IMG/VR virus record: IMGVR_UViG_3300021598_000241
Location: 3,861-31,761 of that record
Direction: 5' to 3' (one strand)
Origin: a virus
DNA: 27,901 bases
Shown: one piece after another, positions 1,303-25,799 of the stretch
Position numbering within the stretch: the first letter of the stretch is position 1
Layout of the letters: every line of letters begins with the position of its first letter
Position numbers and translations under genes: made by a program
The notes under the pieces: model-generated
The model's input: only the letters and a program-made list of their open reading frames with translations
The model's database searches: none
What the model was told of the DNA's origin: nothing

Positions 1303-2496
1303 ATGATAAACAAAACTCCTTTTGAACTAAAGATACAGGATCTAAAAGATTCTGGCAAATATCGTGTATTCAACGATATTTTGCGAGAGCGCGGCAAGTT
1401 TCCCAAAGCAATTTGGTATGGAAAGTACAGCATAAAAGAAATTGTAAACTGGTGCTCAAACGATTACTTAGGTATGGGGCAGCATAAAATAGTTATTGAT
1501 GCTATGCATACTGCTCTAGATCAAACAGGCGCTGGCAGTGGAGGTACACGCAACATAGGCGGTACCAGTCACTATCACGTTGCCCTAGAACTTGAGCTCG
1601 CTAGCCTACACAAAAAGGAACGAGCTCTACTATATACGTCCGCCTATGTTGCAAATGAATGGACGTTGGTTGCTCTTAAACAGATCATTCCTGACATTGT
1701 GTTTCTAAGTGATAGTAAGAACCACGCAAGCCTCATACAAGGAATTAGACACAGTGGTGCTGACAAGGTGGTTTGGCAGCACAATGATTTGAGCGACTTG
1801 GAGCAGAAGCTAAAGAACGTGAAAGGCACGCCCTGCGTGGTTTTTGAGTCCGTGTATAGCATGGATGGTGACGTTTCGCCTATGCTTGACATTTGCAACC
1901 TTTGTGATCGTTACGGTGCAATGACATATATCGATGAAGTACATGCAGTAGGACTCTACGGAGAACATGGCGGTGGCAAGCTAGAACAACTGGGCTTGCA
2001 AGATAGAGTAGACATAGTCAACGGTACTCTAGGCAAAGCGTTTGGAGTCCAAGGTGGCTATATTGCTGCCGATAGTGTAGTCATTGATGCTGTAAGATCT
2101 GTAGCCAGCGGATTTATCTTTACAACAAGTATGAGCCCTGTTACCTGTGCTGGAGCACTAGCCAGTGTCAAGTATCTAAAAGACCATCACGAACTTAGAG
2201 AACAACATCAAAGTGTTAAGTCCCAATTGATGTATTTGCTGAACAAAGCTAATATACCTATTCACCATGATGCATGTAGTCACATAGTACCTGTAATGGT
2301 ACGCGATGCTAAAAAATGTAAAGCTATGAGTGATAGATTGTTAAACGAGTATGGTATCTACATACAACCTATTAACTATCCAACAGTTGATGTAGGTCAG
2401 GAACGACTACGTATTGCCCCTACACCATTGCATACAGATGCAATGCTGTATGATTTAGTAAAAGCTCTTAAAGAGGTATTTGATGAACATTCGTAA
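1303..2496 (+). CDS. hemA: 5-aminolevulinate synthase (ALAS)
   Basis: Condenses glycine with succinyl-CoA to 5-aminolevulinate, CO2 and CoA: the committed, PLP-dependent first step of heme synthesis in the C4 (Shemin) route, in the cytosol. At 397 aa it is close to alphaproteobacterial enzymes and appears complete. Visible family motifs are R21 near the N-terminus, CSNDYLGM (51-58), [17 protein letters not shown] (76-92), [22 protein letters not shown] (182-190), [10 protein letters not shown] with the PLP-ring aspartate D211, the PLP lysine K245 in [13 protein letters not shown], and IQPINYPTV near the end. The TLGKAFG and YPTV motifs favour ALAS over the related KBL/BioF enzymes. It has no clear ribosome-binding site; TTAAATA lies just before the ATG. 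It overlaps the following membrane-protein gene by 14 bp, so the two form an operon. It sits among virion-type genes on the opposite strand and probably came from a host as an auxiliary metabolic gene. Confidence 0.95.
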
Positions 2497-2899
2497 ACTA
2501 TTCTGGAACATACTAGGCTTTATTAGTCTAGGACTTGCATACGTAGGAGTTGTTACTCCAGGCATGCCCTATTCAATCTTTGTAGTGTTTGCCGCATATT
2601 GCTTTAGCAAGGGCAGTGAACGTATGCATCGTTGGATCTACAATCACAAACTGTTTGGACCGTTCCTAACCAATTGGGGGCAGAAGCGTGTGTTCCCAAC
2701 TAAGATGAAATTCTTTATGTTAGCTATGATGAGTTCTAGTTTAGTCATCATGTACTTCACTGGAGTGAAGCCTATAGGTATCTTAAGTACCGCATGCTTT
2801 ATGGCACTGGTTGCTGTATGGGCTTGGAGGTTTCCAGGTAGTGTTGAAGAACACCAGCGCCGTGTAGACACTGGTGCTCGTATAGGCTGGTTTAAGTAG
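2483..2899 (+). CDS. DUF454/YbaN-family inner membrane protein
   Basis: 138 aa. I chose the ATG at 2483, which has GAGG about 8 nt upstream; a TTG directly before it is the alternative. The pattern [20 protein letters not shown] then [19 protein letters not shown], then [12 protein letters not shown], is that of the DUF454 (YbaN) family of small bacterial inner-membrane proteins. Three or four membrane segments are visible: residues about 8-25, 30-43, 72-90 and 95-112. The biochemical role of the family is not known to me. It starts inside the aminolevulinate synthase gene, so translation of the two is coupled; this suggests acquisition as a unit and possibly a link to heme metabolism, which is inference. 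Its 3' end overlaps the convergent HNH gene by 8 bp. Confidence 0.85.
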
Positions 2900-3422
2900 C
2901 AGACATTTCCAAATCAAGCCACTGGTACCAGCTAGGGTGCTTGACATCAAATCCCATCTGTTTGCGCTTACGCACAAGTTCATAGTATCCAGGCTTGTAA
3001 GGCTTGTACTCAGGACGCATGCTCATGCTGTTACCTTTCCTTGCATTACAAGGACCGCATGCTGTTACAATGTTTTCCCAATTGGTCTTACCACCCTTAC
3101 TGATTGGTAATACATGATCCATTGTACCTGTGTTAGATGTAACACTGTCTTTGCAATAGAGGCAATGATACTGATCTCGTAAGAATAGATTTCCTTTTGA
3201 AAACCGTGGCTCTCTTGTGCGTCTTAGATAATCTTTAAGCATGATAACCGCAGGCACACGAGTCTCCCATGAAGCACTATGCACCACCCAGTCATCGTAC
3301 CATTCAAGCACATTGCACTTGTCTAGGTACATATAGGTGATTGCTTCTTTCCATTGGACAGCACTCAGGGGCAGATAGCTCACTGGCTGTCCGTCTGCGT
3401 TGATTACTAGTGTGTCGCTCAC
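2892..3422 (-). CDS. HNH endonuclease
   Basis: 176 aa with a textbook HNH (McrA-like) domain at about residues 78-130: the zinc pair CLYC (C87, C90), the catalytic DH (D102-H103) in GTMDHVLPISKGG, N117 in WENIVTAC, and the second zinc pair CGPC (C122, C125) followed by NARKG. Such proteins cut or nick DNA in a metal-dependent way. The N-terminal 75 residues (NADGQPVSYLPLSAVQWKEA) match a wider group of free-standing HNH proteins common in phages and bacteria. It may be a homing-type or recombination/packaging nuclease; the sequence does not decide. Convergent with the DUF454-type gene. Confidence 0.9.
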   Translation of the reverse strand: MSDTLVINADGQPVSYLPLSAVQWKEAITYMYLDKCNVLEWYDDWVVHSASWETRVPAVIMLKDYLRRTREPRFSKGNLFLRDQYHCLYCKDSVTSNTGTMDHVLPISKGGKTNWENIVTACGPCNARKGNSMSMRPEYKPYKPGYYELVRKRKQMGFDVKHPSWYQWLDLEMSAT

Positions 3423-3448
3423 TTTGTACTTCCTTCGTTTGATTTGGA

Positions 3449-4000
3449 TTAGATGTATCGATTAAACATTTGTTTGCTGGAGAGGTCAACGGCTCTTTCC
3501 CATTGTCTTTCTCCATCATATGTGAATATTATATCTTCATTTGACTTGCATGTCAACCAGCTATTTTCAGGAAGGTAGGGCGCTTGCCCTTTCAATTCCA
3601 TTTCTAGTTGTCCAGGTTGCCAAGCACATATGCCTCCCATCATGCGCCAATACGTGGGCTGATGTCCGTGTGATAACTTTTCTAGCATAAACTCGTCGCT
3701 AGAAATACGCAAGCCTTTACAGATATCTACAGTATTTGACGAAGACCAATCATCAGTGTGCAACATTAGTAGTGCCTTTTCATTAACTGGGCCACCTGCT
3801 CTAATGTAATCTTTGGTTAATGGATATCCAATTCCTCTTGTTTCTGCTAGGTCACTCATAGTGAATCTAGTCGGCTTATTGATCATGAGACCAGTAACCC
3901 CTTGCGGCGAGTCAGAGTATATGAATATTACGCTTTTATGAAAAATACTGCTCACTGGCAGTTTTGGGTGTGCTATGAGCAGTTTCCCTACCCGGCTCAT
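3449..4000 (-). CDS. YqgE/AlgH-family (UPF0301) protein
   Basis: 183 aa from the ATG at 4000 (MSRVGKLLIAHPKLP); a TTG six codons earlier is less likely. The family pattern is clear: GKLLIAHP, SVIFIYSDSPQGVTGLMINK, GGPVNEKALLMLHTDDW, and the hallmark W..M.GICAWQPGQLEMEL. In bacteria the family is linked by name to alginate regulation (AlgH), but its molecular activity is not settled. Finding it inside a phage late-gene block is unusual. Its start lies 2 bp past the stop of the cell-wall hydrolase gene, so it is co-transcribed with it. A host-derived regulatory or structural role is possible. Confidence 0.88.
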   Translation of the reverse strand: MSRVGKLLIAHPKLPVSSIFHKSVIFIYSDSPQGVTGLMINKPTRFTMSDLAETRGIGYPLTKDYIRAGGPVNEKALLMLHTDDWSSSNTVDICKGLRISSDEFMLEKLSHGHQPTYWRMMGGICAWQPGQLEMELKGQAPYLPENSWLTCKSNEDIIFTYDGERQWERAVDLSSKQMFNRYI

Positions 4001-4001
4001 G

Positions 4002-5423
4002 TTAGGTAACGGTTCCAAAAACGGTTCCGCCGATGACTTTGCCTCCCTGGGCTAGCATCTTATCTCTAAAGCCAATGTTGGTTCCAACACCGTACGCTGC
4101 TGAACTTGCGGCAGTAAAGTTTAGCCATTGTTTGTTAGCAGATGGCAGATGATCAGTAAGTGCTTTTGAAATTCTAGCTAACTCGTTTGGTGCCAGTCCG
4201 CCTCTAGCAAAACTGCCTTCGGGTCCAGTCCATTTTCCATTTATTTTCTTACCTGTAACTGGCTGGAACTGTCCTTTCTGATGCACCACAGCATAAACAT
4301 CATCTGGGAATTGCGGAGATCTAACTCTGTTTAGTATCACTGCTGCCACCTGCGCAATTTCCTGCGGATTAGAAGTTGATTCAGCAAGCGTTACCCTAGC
4401 CAATAGCACAAACTCATCAGGGGTTAGGGCTCTGCCTAAGAAATTACTTGCAATCTTCATTGTTTCTTTTATGCCTTCTTCACTGGTTAACTTTGCAACT
4501 TCTTCTGGGTCCATACCTGACGTGCGAGGTTGATTCTCAGTTGGTGTAGGAGTTTTTACTTTTGCAATCTTTGTACCAACACCTGCTAAAGTTTCTAGTT
4601 CTTTGGTTGATACAGACAAGGCTGAGCTACTAATCTCATAATCTTTCTTGAATGCTGCAACTGCTCTAGTAGTTCTAGGACCGTACTTACCGTCAATGCC
4701 TGTATCACCTACAGAGTAACCTATCTTCTCAAGTTTTCTTTGTAGGTCTCTCACAGCGTTCATGTAGGTTTCTTCACGTGGATAAGGCGGACCAGCTTTA
4801 AGTCCGTCTACTACTTCAGCAGTTTGCCCAGTACTGTCTGCGTCAGCACTACCAGTCTTACTAGATGCTCCAGCACTACCTGCTTGATACAGTTTTTTAT
4901 ATCCGCCAAACGGATGTAGGCCATCACCATTACCGCTGTGCATGTTTGGATCAAATTGTTCTAGGGGTCCTAAAAATTTAGCACCATTTGCCCTTGCAGC
5001 TTGCTCTAACTGATCATTTAATCCTGTTGGATCAACTCTATACCTAACTTTTTTAGTCCATGAAGTTCCTGGGAACCACGTAGACTTTTTAGATGGTGCA
5101 CCAACAACAGCTACTTTAGCACCAGCTGCAACTAATGCTCTAACTTGTTGTGCTGGATAGGTTCCTAATCTGCTTGGAATTTCTCCACCGTCCTCTAATT
5201 CAAATCTTGCGCTATTTCCTGCGCCAGTACTTAATATAACTGTAGCGCCTTTGGCTTTTCCTGTTTGTATAAAACTGTTTACTCTATTAAGAACTTCTTG
5301 CGCACTAATTCCACCTTGTGCATACGGACCAGCACCGCCTATACCAACAGCAATACTATCCCCAATAACAACTACGTTACCCTGTTCCGTTTCTATTAGT
5401 TTTTTAATTTCATAAAATCTCAT
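4002..5423 (-). CDS. SGNH hydrolase / peptidoglycan-binding / SleB-type cell-wall hydrolase fusion
   Basis: 473 aa with three parts. Residues about 14-180 look like an SGNH (GDSL-type) esterase: GDSIAVGIGG with the nucleophile S23, a Gly block GAGNSA, and DGLHP with the D167/H170 pair. Residues about 220-285 look like a PG_binding_1 domain (AVRDLQRKLEKIGY, then GIDGKYGPRTTRAVAAFKKD). Residues about 335-470 look like the Hydrolase_2/SleB amidase or transglycosylase fold (LARVTLAEST with E348, VAAVILNRVRSPQFPDD, GQFQPV). A low-complexity Ser/Gly/Ala linker (181-205) and a Pro/Thr linker (288-305) separate them. It probably deacylates and cuts surface glycans or peptidoglycan during entry or lysis. 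No signal peptide is visible, so a virion-borne enzyme is more likely than a secreted lysin. GGAG lies 5 nt before the ATG. Confidence 0.88.
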   Translation of the reverse strand: MRFYEIKKLIETEQGNVVVIGDSIAVGIGGAGPYAQGGISAQEVLNRVNSFIQTGKAKGATVILSTGAGNSARFELEDGGEIPSRLGTYPAQQVRALVAAGAKVAVVGAPSKKSTWFPGTSWTKKVRYRVDPTGLNDQLEQAARANGAKFLGPLEQFDPNMHSGNGDGLHPFGGYKKLYQAGSAGASSKTGSADADSTGQTAEVVDGLKAGPPYPREETYMNAVRDLQRKLEKIGYSVGDTGIDGKYGPRTTRAVAAFKKDYEISSSALSVSTKELETLAGVGTKIAKVKTPTPTENQPRTSGMDPEEVAKLTSEEGIKETMKIASNFLGRALTPDEFVLLARVTLAESTSNPQEIAQVAAVILNRVRSPQFPDDVYAVVHQKGQFQPVTGKKINGKWTGPEGSFARGGLAPNELARISKALTDHLPSANKQWLNFTAASSAAYGVGTNIGFRDKMLAQGGKVIGGTVFGTVT

Positions 5424-18111: not shown

Positions 18112-18331
18112 CGGAATGGTAGATGAAATGGTAAATGAAATGGTAAAAGTATTTGAACTATGCCTCTCGTCACCTCGACCTTGCCAATCTTTTCCACGCT
18201 TGTAGAGGCCGATTTGCGTCCTTGATCAGACGGTTCTAATACACCACCTCACCATAGGACCACCATTGTAGACGGTTTTTAACGCCCTGCAACCGGCCTT
18301 AAATGGTGGTTCTACTCTGACTCTACTGTGA

Positions 18332-18386
18332 AGTCTACTATAGACTAAGCTGTGATCACACTGTGTGACTCTACTATACTGTATAG
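18332..18386. repeat. Cluster of short perfect palindromes
   Basis: AGTCTA-CTA-TAGACT (18332-18346), TGTGATCACA (18351-18360), CACAC-T-GTGTG (18357-18367) and CTATAC-T-GTATAG (18374-18386) lie back to back, about 70 bp before the DnaA-box array. They could be binding sites for an initiator or repressor, or hairpins in a transcript. Confidence 0.6.
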
Positions 18387-18458
18387 ACCTAGACCACTAT
18401 TAACCCTAGTGTCAACCAGGTCTTTCTTTTTTGTGGCTTTTATGCAACGGATTTGCCC

Positions 18459-18552
18459 TGTGGATAAGCTGTGGATAAGCTGTGGATAACTTTGGCCCGT
18501 GCTTGTGGATAAGCTGTGGATAACTTTGACATTGTGGATAACCTGTGGATAA
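18459..18552 (-). other. Array of seven DnaA boxes (TTATCCACA): candidate origin or DnaA-binding locus
   Basis: TGTGGATAA (the complement of the consensus DnaA box TTATCCACA) occurs at 18459, 18470, 18481, 18504, 18515, 18533 and 18544, all in one orientation. Start-to-start distances are 11, 11, 23, 11, 18 and 11 bp, so boxes lie on nearly the same helix face. In bacteria and plasmids such arrays bind the host initiator DnaA. A T-rich tract (18420-18442) next to it could be an unwinding element. Either a replication origin or a site that titrates DnaA is possible. Confidence 0.8.
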
Positions 18553-18606
18553 CCTGGGGTCTCGCGCCTGCCCCTGTTCGTTCGGATTCGGTCCTAAACC
18601 GCCGCC

Positions 18607-18625
18607 CACCCTCCACGTCCACCCC
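18607..18625 (-). repeat. 19-nt repeat CACCCTCCACGTCCACCCC, copy 1
   Basis: Identical to 26215-26233. In both places it lies downstream of a minus-strand sigma-70 promoter, so it would be transcribed as GGGGTGGACGTGGAGGGTG. Confidence 0.75.
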
Positions 18626-18690
18626 GGAATTGTAGTCCTTCGACGCTATGCAGGGGTCTTCTTGTTGTGCCTTGCCCTTACTGTTCTTAC

Positions 18691-18719
18691 AGTATAACGC
18701 CTTTTGGCTTTTGAGTCAA
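18691..18719 (-). promoter_or_regulatory. Minus-strand sigma-70 promoter
   Basis: Read on the minus strand: TTGACT (18719-18714), 17-bp spacer, TATACT (18696-18691). It points left, away from the 18820 gene, through the 19-nt repeat and towards the DnaA boxes. No convincing protein gene lies downstream; a small RNA or priming transcript is possible. Confidence 0.7.
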
Positions 18720-18746
18720 CCGTTTTTTGGTGTCCAGGTCCAGTGT

Positions 18747-18770
18747 AGGGTCTTTATATTTTGGTTGACA
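18747..18770 (+). repeat. Repeated promoter-upstream block, copy 1
   Basis: A 24-nt block beginning AGGGTCTTTATATTTTGG and ending in the -35 box is identical to 19101-19124. The shorter AGGGTCTTT also precedes the promoters at 26330 and 26887. Confidence 0.75.
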
Positions 18771-18793
18771 TGAGGGGCACTTTGCGCTATAAT
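18765..18793 (+). promoter_or_regulatory. Sigma-70 promoter
   Basis: TTGACA at 18765, 17-bp spacer, TATAAT at 18788. Confidence 0.88.
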
Positions 18794-18819
18794 TAACACT
18801 TCGGAACAAAGGAAACACA

Positions 18820-19080
18820 ATGCAAGCACTACGCAAAAGCCCAATCAAATTTACATTTAATAATGTACAGTATAAGGTCCCTGTTAATAACTTTGTCCCC
18901 GCAAAAGGTTATGTTAATGTGTTAGCTATTAGTCCTAGTATAGTAGACGAAAATACAGATAACCCTGCTATTAGAATATTTGTACAATGTAATAAAAACA
19001 GCCAACAAAATGGTCGTCAATATGCTTTGTTTTATAATATTAATAAACGTCAATTTGACGGACATTTTACAGTAAACTAA
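18820..19080 (+). CDS. Hypothetical protein, 86 aa
   Basis: MQALRKSPIKFTFNNVQYKV, NVLAISPSIVDENTDNPAIR, QYALFYNINKRQFDGHFTVN: an all-beta pattern. AAAGGAA ribosome-binding site. Its codons are clearly more AT-rich than those of its neighbours, suggesting separate origin. A single-gene cassette. Function unknown. Confidence 0.75.
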   Translation: MQALRKSPIKFTFNNVQYKVPVNNFVPAKGYVNVLAISPSIVDENTDNPAIRIFVQCNKNSQQNGRQYALFYNINKRQFDGHFTVN

Positions 19081-19100
19081 ACAATAGCCCTTCGCAACGG

Positions 19101-19124
19101 AGGGTCTTTATATTTTGGTTGACA
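19101..19124 (+). repeat. Repeated promoter-upstream block, copy 2
   Basis: Identical 24-nt copy of 18747-18770, ending in the -35 box of the next promoter. Confidence 0.75.
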
Positions 19125-19147
19125 GTTTGGGCTAGAGGTAGTATACT
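19119..19147 (+). promoter_or_regulatory. Sigma-70 promoter
   Basis: TTGACA at 19119, 17-bp spacer, TATACT at 19142. Confidence 0.88.
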
Positions 19148-19170
19148 GTAAACACTAAGGAGAGCAAGCT

Positions 19171-19431
19171 ATGACGCAGAAGACATTCAGATTTGTAGGG
19201 GTCAGTACACTGAACGGTGTGACTGCTGTGCGCTATGCTAACGAGAAGGGCCGTGCTCGTGTACTAGAGCGCAACGGACACTTGGATGTGGTGCTAGTAG
19301 ACGCAGAGGAAGCACTACACCAGATGGACTTGGTGGACCTGCTGTTGACCCGTGCAGAGGCGGGGGAGTTTGATACACCTGCGGTTGAGGCTATAGGTGC
19401 AGAAGCGCGGCGCTTGGGCTTTGTAGTATAA
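19171..19431 (+). CDS. Hypothetical protein, 86 aa (paralog of the 21811 gene)
   Basis: MTQKTFRFVGVSTLNGVTAV, RYANEKGRARVLERNGHLDV. The N-terminal half shares GVST..GVT.VR.AN......L..N.H with the 113-aa protein at 21811; the rest is helical (EEALHQMDLVDLLLTRAEAG). The two probably arose by duplication. A recurring early-region phage protein of unknown role. AAGGAG ribosome-binding site. Confidence 0.8.
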   Translation: MTQKTFRFVGVSTLNGVTAVRYANEKGRARVLERNGHLDVVLVDAEEALHQMDLVDLLLTRAEAGEFDTPAVEAIGAEARRLGFVV

Positions 19432-19455
19432 CCTTACAGGGCACAGGGCTTTTGG

Positions 19456-19484
19456 TTGACAGTTTGGATTTGTCGTGCTATAAT
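19456..19484 (+). promoter_or_regulatory. Sigma-70 promoter
   Basis: TTGACA at 19456, 17-bp spacer, TATAAT at 19479. The start of the spacer (GTTTGG) repeats that of the promoter at 19119. Confidence 0.88.
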
Positions 19485-19514
19485 ATAGGTACAGTAAATA
19501 ACAAGGAGTTAAAA

Positions 19515-19712
19515 ATGACTACATTAAAAGATAAGTTAGGCCGTACTGTAACAGTGGGTGACCGGATAGCGTATGCTTCCTTTCACAACCTAGGAATGAC
19601 GATTGGTACTATCACTAAGCTAGGCCGTCTCCGCGCCGAAGTAATTGCAGAAGATACTAGTTTTAGCGATCGGTCAGAATCTTTACTCACCACTGAATTG
19701 ATCAAGATTTAA
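19515..19712 (+). CDS. Small SH3-like hypothetical protein, 65 aa
   Basis: I use the ATG at 19515 (MTTLKDKLGRTVTVGDRIAY) with AAGGAG 7 nt upstream; the longer frame begins inside the promoter. A beta-barrel-like pattern (VGDRIAYASFHNLGMTIGTI, KLGRLRAEVIAE) suggests a small SH3/KOW-type fold. Function unknown. Confidence 0.75.
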   Translation: MTTLKDKLGRTVTVGDRIAYASFHNLGMTIGTITKLGRLRAEVIAEDTSFSDRSESLLTTELIKI

Positions 19713-19717
19713 AACGG

Positions 19718-19746
19718 TTGACAGCATCTGAGAACGGTGCTATACT
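19718..19746 (+). promoter_or_regulatory. Sigma-70 promoter
   Basis: TTGACA at 19718, 17-bp spacer, TATACT at 19741. It drives 19779-20441. Confidence 0.88.
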
Positions 19747-22257: not shown

Positions 22258-22334
<77 letters not shown>

Positions 22335-22338
22335 TATC

Positions 22339-22423
22339 GCGACTGTGGTGAAATAGGTAGACACAAGAGACTTAAAATCTCTCGCTTTCGGGCGTGCCGG
22401 TTCGATTCCGGCCAGTCGCACCA
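22339..22423 (+). tRNA. tRNA-Leu (TAA)
   Basis: 85 nt, class II with a long variable arm. Acceptor GCGACTG/CAGTCGC is perfect, anticodon stem GAGA/TCTC with loop CTTAAAA (anticodon TAA), T-loop TTCGATT, CCA encoded. It starts 4 nt after the previous tRNA. It reads UUA/UUG codons. Confidence 0.93.
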
Positions 22424-22429
22424 TCCAAT

Positions 22430-22505
22430 CTGCCCGTAGCTCAGTGGATAGAGCAACAGCCTTCTAAGCTGTGGGTCGGAGGTTCGATCCCTCCCGGGCA
22501 GGCCA
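22430..22505 (+). tRNA. tRNA-Arg (TCT)
   Basis: 76 nt. Acceptor CTGCCCG/CGGGCAG is perfect, with TAGCTC at positions 8-13; anticodon stem CAGCC..../GCTG with loop around TTCTAA, anticodon TCT; T-arm GGAGG-TTCGATC-CCTCC; discriminator G and encoded CCA. It reads AGA/AGG, codons often rare in hosts but common in phages. Confidence 0.93.
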
Positions 22506-23636: not shown

Positions 23637-24650
23637 ATGGGCAAGAACATTCGTATTTTAAATGGCAGTTACAAGATCCGCGGCAAAGATGTAGATCTTG
23701 CAGGTATGGTATTTCCACTAGTAGAAGGCTTCAAGGTGGGTGCTAAGGGCGGGTACGTAACCGTTGATGGTAAGTCAGTAGCAGGGTTCCCAGATCGTAA
23801 TATTAAGATTGCATGCGACAGCGAGGATGCATACGAAGACGCAGGCGCGGCTCGTGTGACCAAGCGTGAAGAGTCAGATGAAGATGTGATCGAACGCATG
23901 CGTGAGCGTTTCCAGATGCTGGAAGACATGACGCGAGCATGCAAGAAGGGTTCTGTGCGAGCAATGATTGTATCAGGACCCCCAGGCGTTGGCAAGAGCT
24001 TTGGTGTTGAGAAGGTCTTGGGCAAGCACGATCTGTTGGCAGACATTGCTAACGATCAGAAGCTCAAGAAGTACGAAGTGGTCAAGGGTGCAATGAGTGC
24101 AATCGGTCTCTATTGCAAGCTGTTCCAATACGCAGACAAAGACTGTGTGATTGTGTTCGATGACTGTGATAGTGTACTCCTGGACGACCTGAGCTTGAAC
24201 ATCTTGAAGGCTGCGCTAGACTCTAAGAAGAATAGACGCATCTGCTGGAACACTGACAGCTTCAAGTTGAAGAACGAAGGCGTGCCAGACAGCTTCGAGT
24301 TCAAAGGCAGTGCGATCTTTATTACCAACATCAAGTTCGATAACGTTAAGAGCAAGAAGCTGCGTGATCACCTTGAGGCATTGGAGAGTCGTTGCCACTA
24401 CATTGACTTGACCATTGACAGCGAGCGTGATAAGATCCTGCGCATCAAGCAGATCACCAAAGATGGTATGTTGGATACCTATGAGTTTGAAGATGGCATG
24501 AGTGATGACATCTTAGAGTTTATTGAAACAAACAAGAAGCGACTACGTGAACTGAGCTTGCGCACAGTACTTAAGGTCGCCGATTTAGCCAAAGCATTCC
24601 CCGATCGTTGGGAAGCTATGGCGGAGAACACTGTGATGAAACGTGGCTAG
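23637..24650 (+). CDS. AAA+ family ATPase, 337 aa
   Basis: Walker A GPPGVGKS (residues 114-121), Walker B VIVFDDCD (171-178), a sensor-1-type Asn in AIFITN (N231) and an Arg in LESRCHYIDL (R252) that may act in trans. The N-terminal 100 residues (MGKNIRILNGSYKIRGKDVD, GFKVGAKGGYVTVDGKSV) form a phage-specific domain. The architecture matches stand-alone AAA+ ATPases frequent in phage early regions. Roles in remodelling replication or host complexes are possible; the substrate is not evident. AAGAGGG lies 9 nt before the ATG. It is monocistronic and followed by three hairpins ending in a strong terminator. Confidence 0.9.
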   Translation: MGKNIRILNGSYKIRGKDVDLAGMVFPLVEGFKVGAKGGYVTVDGKSVAGFPDRNIKIACDSEDAYEDAGAARVTKREESDEDVIERMRERFQMLEDMTRACKKGSVRAMIVSGPPGVGKSFGVEKVLGKHDLLADIANDQKLKKYEVVKGAMSAIGLYCKLFQYADKDCVIVFDDCDSVLLDDLSLNILKAALDSKKNRRICWNTDSFKLKNEGVPDSFEFKGSAIFITNIKFDNVKSKKLRDHLEALESRCHYIDLTIDSERDKILRIKQITKDGMLDTYEFEDGMSDDILEFIETNKKRLRELSLRTVLKVADLAKAFPDRWEAMAENTVMKRG

Positions 24651-25137: not shown

Positions 25138-25172
25138 TTATCCACAGGTTATCCACAGGGGGCTGTGGATAA
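25138..25172. repeat. Three DnaA boxes, forming a perfect inverted repeat
   Basis: TTATCCACA at 25138 and 25149 (again 11 bp apart) and TGTGGATAA at 25164. GTTATCCACAG-GGGG-CTGTGGATAAC is a perfect 11-bp inverted repeat (25148-25173), so as RNA it would fold into a strong hairpin. It could be a second DnaA-binding site or end the upstream transcript. Confidence 0.75.
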
Positions 25173-25191: not shown

Positions 25192-25220
25192 TTGACAGGG
25201 CACCCAAAAGGTCTTATAAT
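25192..25220 (+). promoter_or_regulatory. Sigma-70 promoter
   Basis: TTGACA at 25192, 17-bp spacer, TATAAT at 25215. It drives the gp88-like gene and the 87-aa gene. Confidence 0.88.
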
Positions 25221-25253: not shown

Positions 25254-25799
25254 ATGTTCAAACTATTAAGTACCGCAAATCCAAAGATCCAAAAGGGCAC
25301 CAAATATGGCTATCTATCTTTCATCCTACACTTGGCACCCGCAGACCTTAGTGGACGTGAAGTCTGCCCTAAACGGACTGCCGGTTGTACCCAGGCTTGT
25401 CTTAACACCGCAGGGCGCGGTGGTATGTTCCGCAAAGGCGAGAACACCAATGTCATCCAGCAGGCTCGCATCCGCAAGACTAAGATGTACTTTGAGCAAC
25501 GGGAAGAGTTCCTTGACGCCCTGCGCAAAGACATCAAGCTGGGCATCAAGCAGGCAGCTCGTTTGGGTTTGACGCCCGTGTTCCGCTTGAATGGTACTAG
25601 CGACTTGGCTTGGGAAAAGACAGGCATTTTTGATGAGTTCCCTAGTGTACAATTTTACGACTACACCAAAGTCCTGGGTCGTAAGGTTGCTGGCATTAAG
25701 AACCCTAAGAACGTGATTGCAGGACTTAAGGCCAAGGGTCGTGCTAAAAAGGACACTACAGGTTTCGTTCGTAAGACTATCATGATGGAGGTTGCATAA
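25254..25799 (+). CDS. Phage gp88-like protein, internally shortened, 181 aa
   Basis: Matches the 'gene product 88' family by LSTANPKIQKGTKYGYLSFI, LHLAPADLSGREVCPKRTAG, CTQACLNTAGRGGMF, FRLNGTSDLAW and VQFYDYTKVLGRK, then NVIAGLKAKGRAKKDTTGFV. From memory, full members have another 50-100 residues between 'YDYTK...R' and '...GLKAKG' (including a 'NYHLTFS' segment). Here the two blocks are joined directly (about residues 144-152), with both ends intact, so an in-frame internal deletion is likely. Conserved cysteines C38, C45 and C49 remain. Function of the family unknown. GAGGGCA ribosome-binding site. Confidence 0.85.
   Translation: MFKLLSTANPKIQKGTKYGYLSFILHLAPADLSGREVCPKRTAGCTQACLNTAGRGGMFRKGENTNVIQQARIRKTKMYFEQREEFLDALRKDIKLGIKQAARLGLTPVFRLNGTSDLAWEKTGIFDEFPSVQFYDYTKVLGRKVAGIKNPKNVIAGLKAKGRAKKDTTGFVRKTIMMEVA

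What the first reader, a model, noticed from the sequence alone, without database searches (positions are those of the whole stretch)
18459..18552. Seven helically phased DnaA boxes in a 0.7-kb gene-free region
Seven exact TGTGGATAA sequences in one orientation with 11, 11, 23, 11, 18 and 11 bp steps cannot be chance, and lie in the longest non-coding stretch of the window beside a T-rich tract. T4-like phages normally start replication without DnaA, so a consensus DnaA array suggests either a host-DnaA-dependent origin or a locus that titrates DnaA to block host replication.
Basis: partly seen in the sequence, partly recalled or inferred. Interest (0 to 1): 0.85.

Follow-up and report, generated by a model that had tools for sequence, protein, structure and literature searches.

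The report
Host DnaA-binding array in jumbo phage
A large T4-like virus of aquatic bacteria carries seven perfect docking sites for its host's DNA-replication starter protein in a gene-free stretch; relatives fill the same stretch with docking sites for other host chromosome proteins, which suggests a virus-borne trap for host factors rather than a replication start site.

Summary
The array is real: seven exact TGTGGATAA boxes at 18459-18552, one orientation, steps 11/11/23/11/18/11, in the window's longest gene-free gap (708 bp). Three more lie at 25138-25172, just upstream of a perfect sigma70 promoter. The contig is a fragment of a T4-type jumbo phage: relatives of 262 and 358 kb carry gp23 and a DnaB-family helicase, and no DnaA, integrase, ParA or HU/IHF match. 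The gap is a conserved hub with a 41-bp element at its left edge, found in 20 viral contigs. Hub content is modular: DnaA arrays, paired XerCD dif sites, IHF sites, Fur-like boxes, or none. Spacers between related hubs do not align, yet the boxes stay exact. Across 85 array loci from viral contigs, boxes are 378:9 co-oriented and helically phased. Bacterial arrays are 579:255 and usually flanked by AT-rich DNA; viral arrays mostly are not, and neither GC skew nor strand-corrected skew switches at the array. I therefore favour a datA-like DnaA-binding decoy over a DnaA-dependent origin. Control of phage genes by DnaA (as CtrA does in alphaproteobacterial phages) and a T5-type injection-stop element remain open. 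No binding or function has been shown.

The parts
18138..18178 (+). Conserved left-edge element of the hub (core AGTATTTGAACTATGCCTCTCG, 18148-18169)
   Evidence: 93% identical in G001 and 90% in G002 over 41 bp, 90% in L161 over 31 bp; core found in 20 viral contigs
18255..18314 (.). Imperfect inverted repeat (arms 18255-18278 and 18291-18314, ACCACCATT / AATGGTGGT); similar CCACCATT motifs in relatives
   Evidence: seen by eye in G001 and G002
18369..18431 (.). Least stable segment left of the boxes and T-rich 13-mer-like tract GGTCTTTCTTTTT (18419-18431); the only DUE-like feature
   Evidence: 97th percentile of duplex instability; 9 of 11 match to the oriC 13-mer, 6 such windows in the whole 27.9 kb
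18459..18467 (+). DnaA box 1 TGTGGATAA
18470..18478 (+). DnaA box 2
18481..18489 (+). DnaA box 3
18504..18512 (+). DnaA box 4
18515..18523 (+). DnaA box 5
18533..18541 (+). DnaA box 6
18544..18552 (+). DnaA box 7
18616..18650 (+). Conserved element CGTCCACCCCGGAATTGTAGTCCTTCGACGCTATG right of the array, nearly unchanged in relative L485; role unknown
18765..18793 (+). Perfect sigma70-type promoter (TTGACA-17-TATAAT) of the first gene right of the hub (ORF 18820-19080)
   Evidence: 12 of 12
25138..25172 (.). Second cluster: two boxes on - (25138-25146, 25149-25157) and one on + (25164-25172), ending 20 bp before a TTGACA-17-TATAAT promoter (25192-25220) of the gp88-like gene 25254-25799

Best explanation
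The array is a platform that collects host DnaA on phage DNA, working like E. coli datA (a titration/inactivation locus) and not as a start of phage replication. Co-oriented consensus boxes about one helical turn apart would let DnaA load side by side as one ordered oligomer. As phage genomes multiply, 7-10 boxes per copy would tie up the host's DnaA, stop new host initiation and disturb DnaA-controlled promoters. It is one module of a gene-free hub at the head of a run of small genes with strong host-type promoters; in relatives the same hub carries XerCD dif pairs, IHF sites and Fur-like boxes, so the hub as a whole looks like a decoy for host DNA-binding proteins. Shown: anatomy, conservation, modularity, enrichment, lack of a skew switch and of a general unwinding element. 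Inferred: DnaA binding, oligomer formation, titration, and its benefit to the phage.
For: Exact boxes kept while spacers turn over between related hubs. Hub modular across 20 contigs: DnaA, dif, IHF, Fur-like or none. In 85 viral array loci boxes are 378:9 co-oriented, 92 of 125 spacings not imposed by the search lie within 1.6 bp of a multiple of 10.5 (35% expected). IHF sites 5.3-fold denser near arrays (47 against 11 for the reversed motif), dif 9 near and 0 elsewhere, Fur-like 7 against 0; same against non-coding background in G002. No phage DnaA, tyrosine recombinase or HU/IHF match. A DnaB-family helicase in seven of eight relatives and a B-family polymerase in two. Bacterial arrays differ (mixed orientation, AT-rich flanks). 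Arrays also sit in phages of T7 and T5 type, whose replication is not known to need DnaA (own knowledge). datA is a box cluster plus IHF site that lowers active DnaA (PMC4585315).
Against: No binding data. The window's own hub has no IHF consensus or dif, so datA-type hydrolysis is less likely here than plain sequestration. One genome carries only 10 boxes, too few to titrate DnaA before replication. Several relatives keep the hub without boxes. A T-rich, unstable segment does sit left of box 1.
Confidence: 0.42

Rival explanations
1. Regulation: host DnaA bound at the boxes controls nearby phage genes, so that the phage reads the host's replication or cell-cycle state, as CtrA does in alphaproteobacterial phages.
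For: The 25138-25172 cluster ends 20 bp before a perfect promoter. The main array lies about 210 bp before another. Precedent: CtrA sites packed in large intergenic regions of several unrelated phages, with CtrA binding and regulation shown (PMC9437464).
Against: The main array is far from any promoter in the window and in G002. Neighbouring genes each have their own consensus promoter. dif sites are not known regulators of transcription.
Confidence: 0.22
2. Origin: DnaA opens DNA beside the array and starts an early round of phage replication.
For: Consensus boxes, a T-rich 13-mer-like tract and a segment at the 97th percentile of instability left of box 1 in the order seen at E. coli oriC (oriC order from own knowledge); IHF sites in relatives.
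Against: No switch of raw or strand-corrected skew at the array; the corrected minimum lies 47-49 kb away in both long relatives. AT-rich flank in 21% of viral arrays and 0 of 4 here, against 60% of bacterial arrays. Box number varies from 7 to 0 in homologous hubs. T4-type replication genes present.
Confidence: 0.15
3. Entry element: host proteins bound at the hub pause or anchor the incoming genome, as proposed for the T5 injection stop signal.
For: T5 iss is a gene-free region with repeats and DnaA boxes (PMC13250531); on inspection it has co-oriented box-like sites and Fur-like boxes. Arrays lie in terminal repeats of T7-type phiEap-1 and of Vibrio phage VF16.
Against: Needs a fixed virion end near the hub. 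The hub lies 11.4 kb from one contig end in G001 but 61.5 kb in G002, and T4-type phages normally package permuted genomes (own knowledge). Virion ends are unknown.
Confidence: 0.13
4. Plasmid-like maintenance: boxes, IHF and dif form a replicon with dimer resolution for a carrier state.
For: Boxes, IHF and dif together resemble plasmid control regions; dif occurs only near arrays among the array loci.
Against: No ParA or integrase match. The dif pairs have unequal central hexamers (TGTGTA and AATATA in G002). No dif in the window.
Confidence: 0.06

Closest known systems
E. coli datA (DnaA titration and DnaA-ATP hydrolysis locus)
   Same: Non-coding cluster of DnaA boxes outside an origin; IHF sites nearby in relatives, some close to the datA IHF site TATCAATAGGTTA
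   Different: On a phage genome; more, exact and co-oriented boxes; no IHF consensus in the window's own hub
Bacteriophage T5 injection stop signal (iss)
   Same: Gene-free phage region with DnaA boxes and repeats; T5 iss also has Fur-like boxes, as G002 does
   Different: T5 has one exact box there and three with one mismatch; fixed virion end; no dif; unrelated phage
CtrA-site-rich intergenic regions of alphaproteobacterial phages (lytic deferment, PMC9437464)
   Same: Large phage intergenic region packed with sites of a host cell-cycle regulator, arisen in several lineages
   Different: DnaA instead of CtrA; main array not at a promoter; sites of several host factors in relatives
oriC-type DnaA-dependent origins
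   Same: Consensus boxes with helical spacing; a T-rich tract beside the first box
   Different: No general unwinding element, no skew switch, boxes in one orientation
dif / XerCD sites of bacterial chromosomes and plasmids
   Same: Both XerC and XerD arms nearly perfect in relatives
   Different: Paired 70-110 bp apart with unequal central hexamers, beside DnaA boxes, in phages with no tyrosine recombinase match

Membership tests
DnaA-dependent origin (oriC-type) | Cluster of consensus DnaA boxes in non-coding DNA | tested here: met
DnaA-dependent origin (oriC-type) | AT-rich unwinding element next to the boxes | tested here: inconclusive
   Window: 97th-percentile unstable segment and a 9/11 13-mer; lineage 0 of 4, viral arrays 21%, bacterial 60%
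DnaA-dependent origin (oriC-type) | Strand-composition switch at the site | tested here: not met
DnaA-dependent origin (oriC-type) | Replication starts there (read-depth peak) | not testable with these tools
   no reads held
datA-type locus | DnaA-box cluster away from the replication origin | tested here: inconclusive
   boxes shown; the phage's real origin is unknown, skew minimum about 48 kb away
datA-type locus | IHF site among or beside the boxes | tested here: not met
   none by strict consensus in the window; present in G001, G002, L161, L165
datA-type locus | Lowers active DnaA and delays initiation | not testable with these tools
   needs experiment; not filed as a datA member, only as working like one
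T5-type injection stop signal | Gene-free region with DnaA boxes and inverted repeats | tested here: met
T5-type injection stop signal | Lies at the inner edge of a first-entering terminal segment | tested here: inconclusive
   no end repeats found in G001 or G002, hub 11.4 and 61.5 kb from a contig end
Host-regulator-rich phage intergenic region (CtrA type) | Regulator sites concentrated in one intergenic region | tested here: met
   G001: 5 of 9 exact boxes within 105 bp of 357 kb
Host-regulator-rich phage intergenic region (CtrA type) | Sites in promoter regions that regulate phage genes | tested here: inconclusive
   only the second cluster abuts a promoter; regulation not testable here

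The most novel reading that the evidence does not exclude
T4-type jumbo phages carry a modular decoy hub that mimics control sites of the host chromosome (DnaA boxes, XerCD dif, IHF, Fur) at the head of a run of small host-promoter genes; different lineages swap modules, and phage copy number turns the hub into a sponge that captures several host chromosome-maintenance proteins at once.
Probability: 0.33. Interest if true: 0.85.

Novelty: new variant of a known kind. Interest (0 to 1): 0.68.

Why it matters
If right, virulent phages would use DNA itself, not a protein, to capture the host replication initiator, and in relatives XerCD, IHF or Fur. It would also offer a reading of why T5 iss and other phage non-coding regions hold DnaA boxes in phages not thought to need DnaA. 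Co-oriented, phased arrays in some 85 separate viral loci are a signature that can be scanned for, and the idea can be tested with a plasmid in a laboratory strain.

Tried and rejected
Chance: rejected. Coding explanation: the small frames across the array (18412-18609, 18440-18622, 18545-18697) have no support and the hub diverges between relatives like non-coding DNA. Phage-encoded DnaA, tyrosine recombinase or HU/IHF using the sites: no match in eight records. KOPS near arrays: as frequent as the reversed motif. FNR, ArgR, Cra, SlmA, matS, Tus, LexA, PurR: no enrichment. DnaA-trio reading of the CTACTATA segment: judged by eye to be on the wrong strand and dropped. Known structured RNA families: only tRNAs. 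PA5oct, a named jumbo phage sharing the nrdC.10-type gene, has no box pair anywhere. Literature searches for DnaA boxes in jumbo phages, as decoys, or in T5-like phages gave nothing direct. A script failed on a tie between clusters and was corrected.

Full report
Observation. The window has 10 exact copies against 0.38 expected and at most 3 in 100 shuffles. The other three form an inverted cluster at 25138-25172 that ends 20 bp before a perfect sigma70 promoter of a gp88-like gene. The gap 18112-18819 is the longest in the window and is closed on the right by a TTGACA-17-TATAAT promoter.

What carries it. The window is 27.9 kb of a 31,761-bp IMG/VR contig. Its AAA ATPase at 23637-24650 belongs to phrog_1250 and has relatives in PA5oct-type and T4-type phages, where it is called nrdC.10. 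A search with it gave two long relatives, G001 (357,559 bp) and G002 (261,806 bp), which share the window's left cassette (ALA-synthase-like aminotransferase, DUF454, HNH, AlgH). Both carry gp23 major capsid and DnaB-family helicase genes; G001 also a B-family polymerase. None of eight records searched has a match to the DnaA C-terminal domain, tyrosine recombinase, HU/IHF or ParA families. If the sites are read by proteins of those families, these must be the host's.

The hub in relatives. G001, G002, L161 and L165 have their boxes in the syntenic gap 5-7 kb left of the nrdC.10-type gene and in the same orientation. In G001 this gap is the largest gene-free gap of the whole record. A 41-bp element at its left edge is 90-93% identical in G001 and G002; its core is present in 20 viral contigs. 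What follows it is modular: seven boxes in copies of the window phage, five in L493 and G001, four plus two inverted in L485, three exact among six TGTGNATAA in G002, two dif sites without a nearby box in L494, IHF sites alone in L490 and L492, none of these in L486, L487 and L496. Aligning window, L493, L485 and G001 leaves spacers with little resemblance while the boxes stay exact, which argues for selection on the 9-mer itself.

Sites of other host factors. G002, L161/L303, L165, L029 and L494 carry two sites each with both the XerC and XerD arms of the dif consensus (0 to 4 mismatches in 22 arm positions), 70-110 bp apart, with unequal central hexamers. An unrelated GC-rich viral group has a similar pairing, boxes at -136 to -102 and often +89/+111 of one dif. 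The consensus sequences used for dif, IHF and Fur are from my own knowledge of E. coli. Over 85 de-duplicated array loci, IHF consensus sites within 500 bp are 5.3 times as dense as elsewhere (47 against 11 for the reversed motif), dif occurs 9 times near and never elsewhere, and a Fur-like 15-mer 7 times against none for the reversed motif; most other regulators show nothing. Against non-coding background only, G002 has IHF 3 in 1.07 kb against 0 in 12.9 kb and dif 2 against 0; G001 has 5 boxes in 0.69 kb against 0 in 19.8 kb. The window's own hub has neither dif nor an IHF consensus.

Origin or not. Viral arrays are 378:9 co-oriented, three per locus being imposed by the search pattern; spacings not imposed peak at 11-12, 19-22 and 32-34 bp. 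The same scan of bacterial genomes gave 119 arrays, 44 of them with dnaA-like or rpmH-like sequence nearby; their boxes are 579:255, and 60% have an AT-rich flank above the 97.5th percentile of random windows, against 21% of viral arrays and 0 of 4 in this lineage. Cumulative GC skew follows gene strand and turns near the divergent gene switch left of the hub, not at the array; strand-corrected third-position skew has its minimum at 60 kb in G001 and 108 kb in G002, 47-49 kb from the array in both. The window does have a T-rich, 97th-percentile unstable segment left of box 1, so an origin is disfavoured, not excluded.

Mechanism. Even spacing and one orientation are what an ordered DnaA oligomer needs (inference from what is known of DnaA). 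E. coli datA, a box cluster with an IHF site, lowers active DnaA (PMC4585315; sequence checked). I therefore propose a datA-like decoy whose dose rises with phage copy number, within a hub that in relatives also displays sites for XerCD, IHF and Fur. Binding, titration and benefit are not shown. Two documented precedents keep rivals alive: alphaproteobacterial phages concentrate CtrA sites in large intergenic regions and CtrA regulates phage genes there (PMC9437464), and T5 iss is a gene-free region with DnaA boxes (PMC13250531) that on inspection also holds Fur-like boxes.

Limits. The viral and genome scans stopped at about 120 rows, so they are samples. De-duplication was by shared 14-mers near the array. 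Some array contigs may be prophage or bacterial DNA. Completeness and topology of G001 and G002 are unknown, and so is the host.

Noticed in passing
window 1303-4018: Cassette of an ALA-synthase-like aminotransferase, DUF454 (YbaN-like), HNH endonuclease and AlgH-like protein, kept in order in G001 and G002. Phage-borne ALA synthase has been described from aquatic metagenomes (PMC11480375).
   Followed up: partly
window 25138-25172: Second DnaA-box cluster (two -, one +) 20 bp before a perfect sigma70 promoter; looks like a regulatory site.
   Followed up: partly
window 18765-19746: Successive small genes right of the hub each have a near-perfect sigma70 promoter, a pattern that suggests early genes read by host RNA polymerase.
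   Followed up: no
window 22258-22505: Three tRNA genes in a row (Met, Leu-TAA, Arg-TCT).
   Followed up: no
L276 1287-1420; L303 7602-7734; L494; L029 277-400; L165 959-1060: Pairs of near-perfect dif sites with unequal central hexamers in hubs of T4-type jumbo phages without a tyrosine recombinase match.
   Followed up: partly
L500 (T5) 1141-2150; L357 1736-3497: The T5 iss and a related Salmonella phage region hold a row of Fur-like boxes (TGAGAATGATTCTCA type) next to DnaA boxes, and many GTGCAAATCCGACA repeats.
   Followed up: partly
L015, L066, L077, L108, L252, L280 and similar: GC-rich (about 65%) viral group with four co-oriented DnaA boxes beside a dif-like site AGTGCGTATAACACCCATTATGTTAAAT in well over 20 contigs.
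   Followed up: no
L361 71-174 and its copy at record positions 39009-39112: T7-type phage phiEap-1 has five co-oriented DnaA boxes at 21, 22, 30 and 21 bp steps near both genome ends.
   Followed up: no
proteins next to arrays in L008-L121 (alignment A1): Terminase large subunits are the commonest named neighbours of the viral arrays (at least 9 of 148 proteins), and ferrochelatase turns up twice.
   Followed up: no
L355 15040-15658 (PA5oct): PA5oct has an RNA-seq-supported non-coding RNA in the gene-free stretch left of its nrdC.10-type gene, roughly where the hub lies here, but no DnaA boxes.
   Followed up: no
G001 about 60 kb; G002 about 108 kb: Strand-corrected third-position skew minimum 47-49 kb right of the hub in both genomes; a candidate for the real origin region.
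   Followed up: no
L493 hub: Many ACCGGT...ACCGGT repeats fill the hub of this relative beside its five DnaA boxes; binding protein unknown.
   Followed up: no
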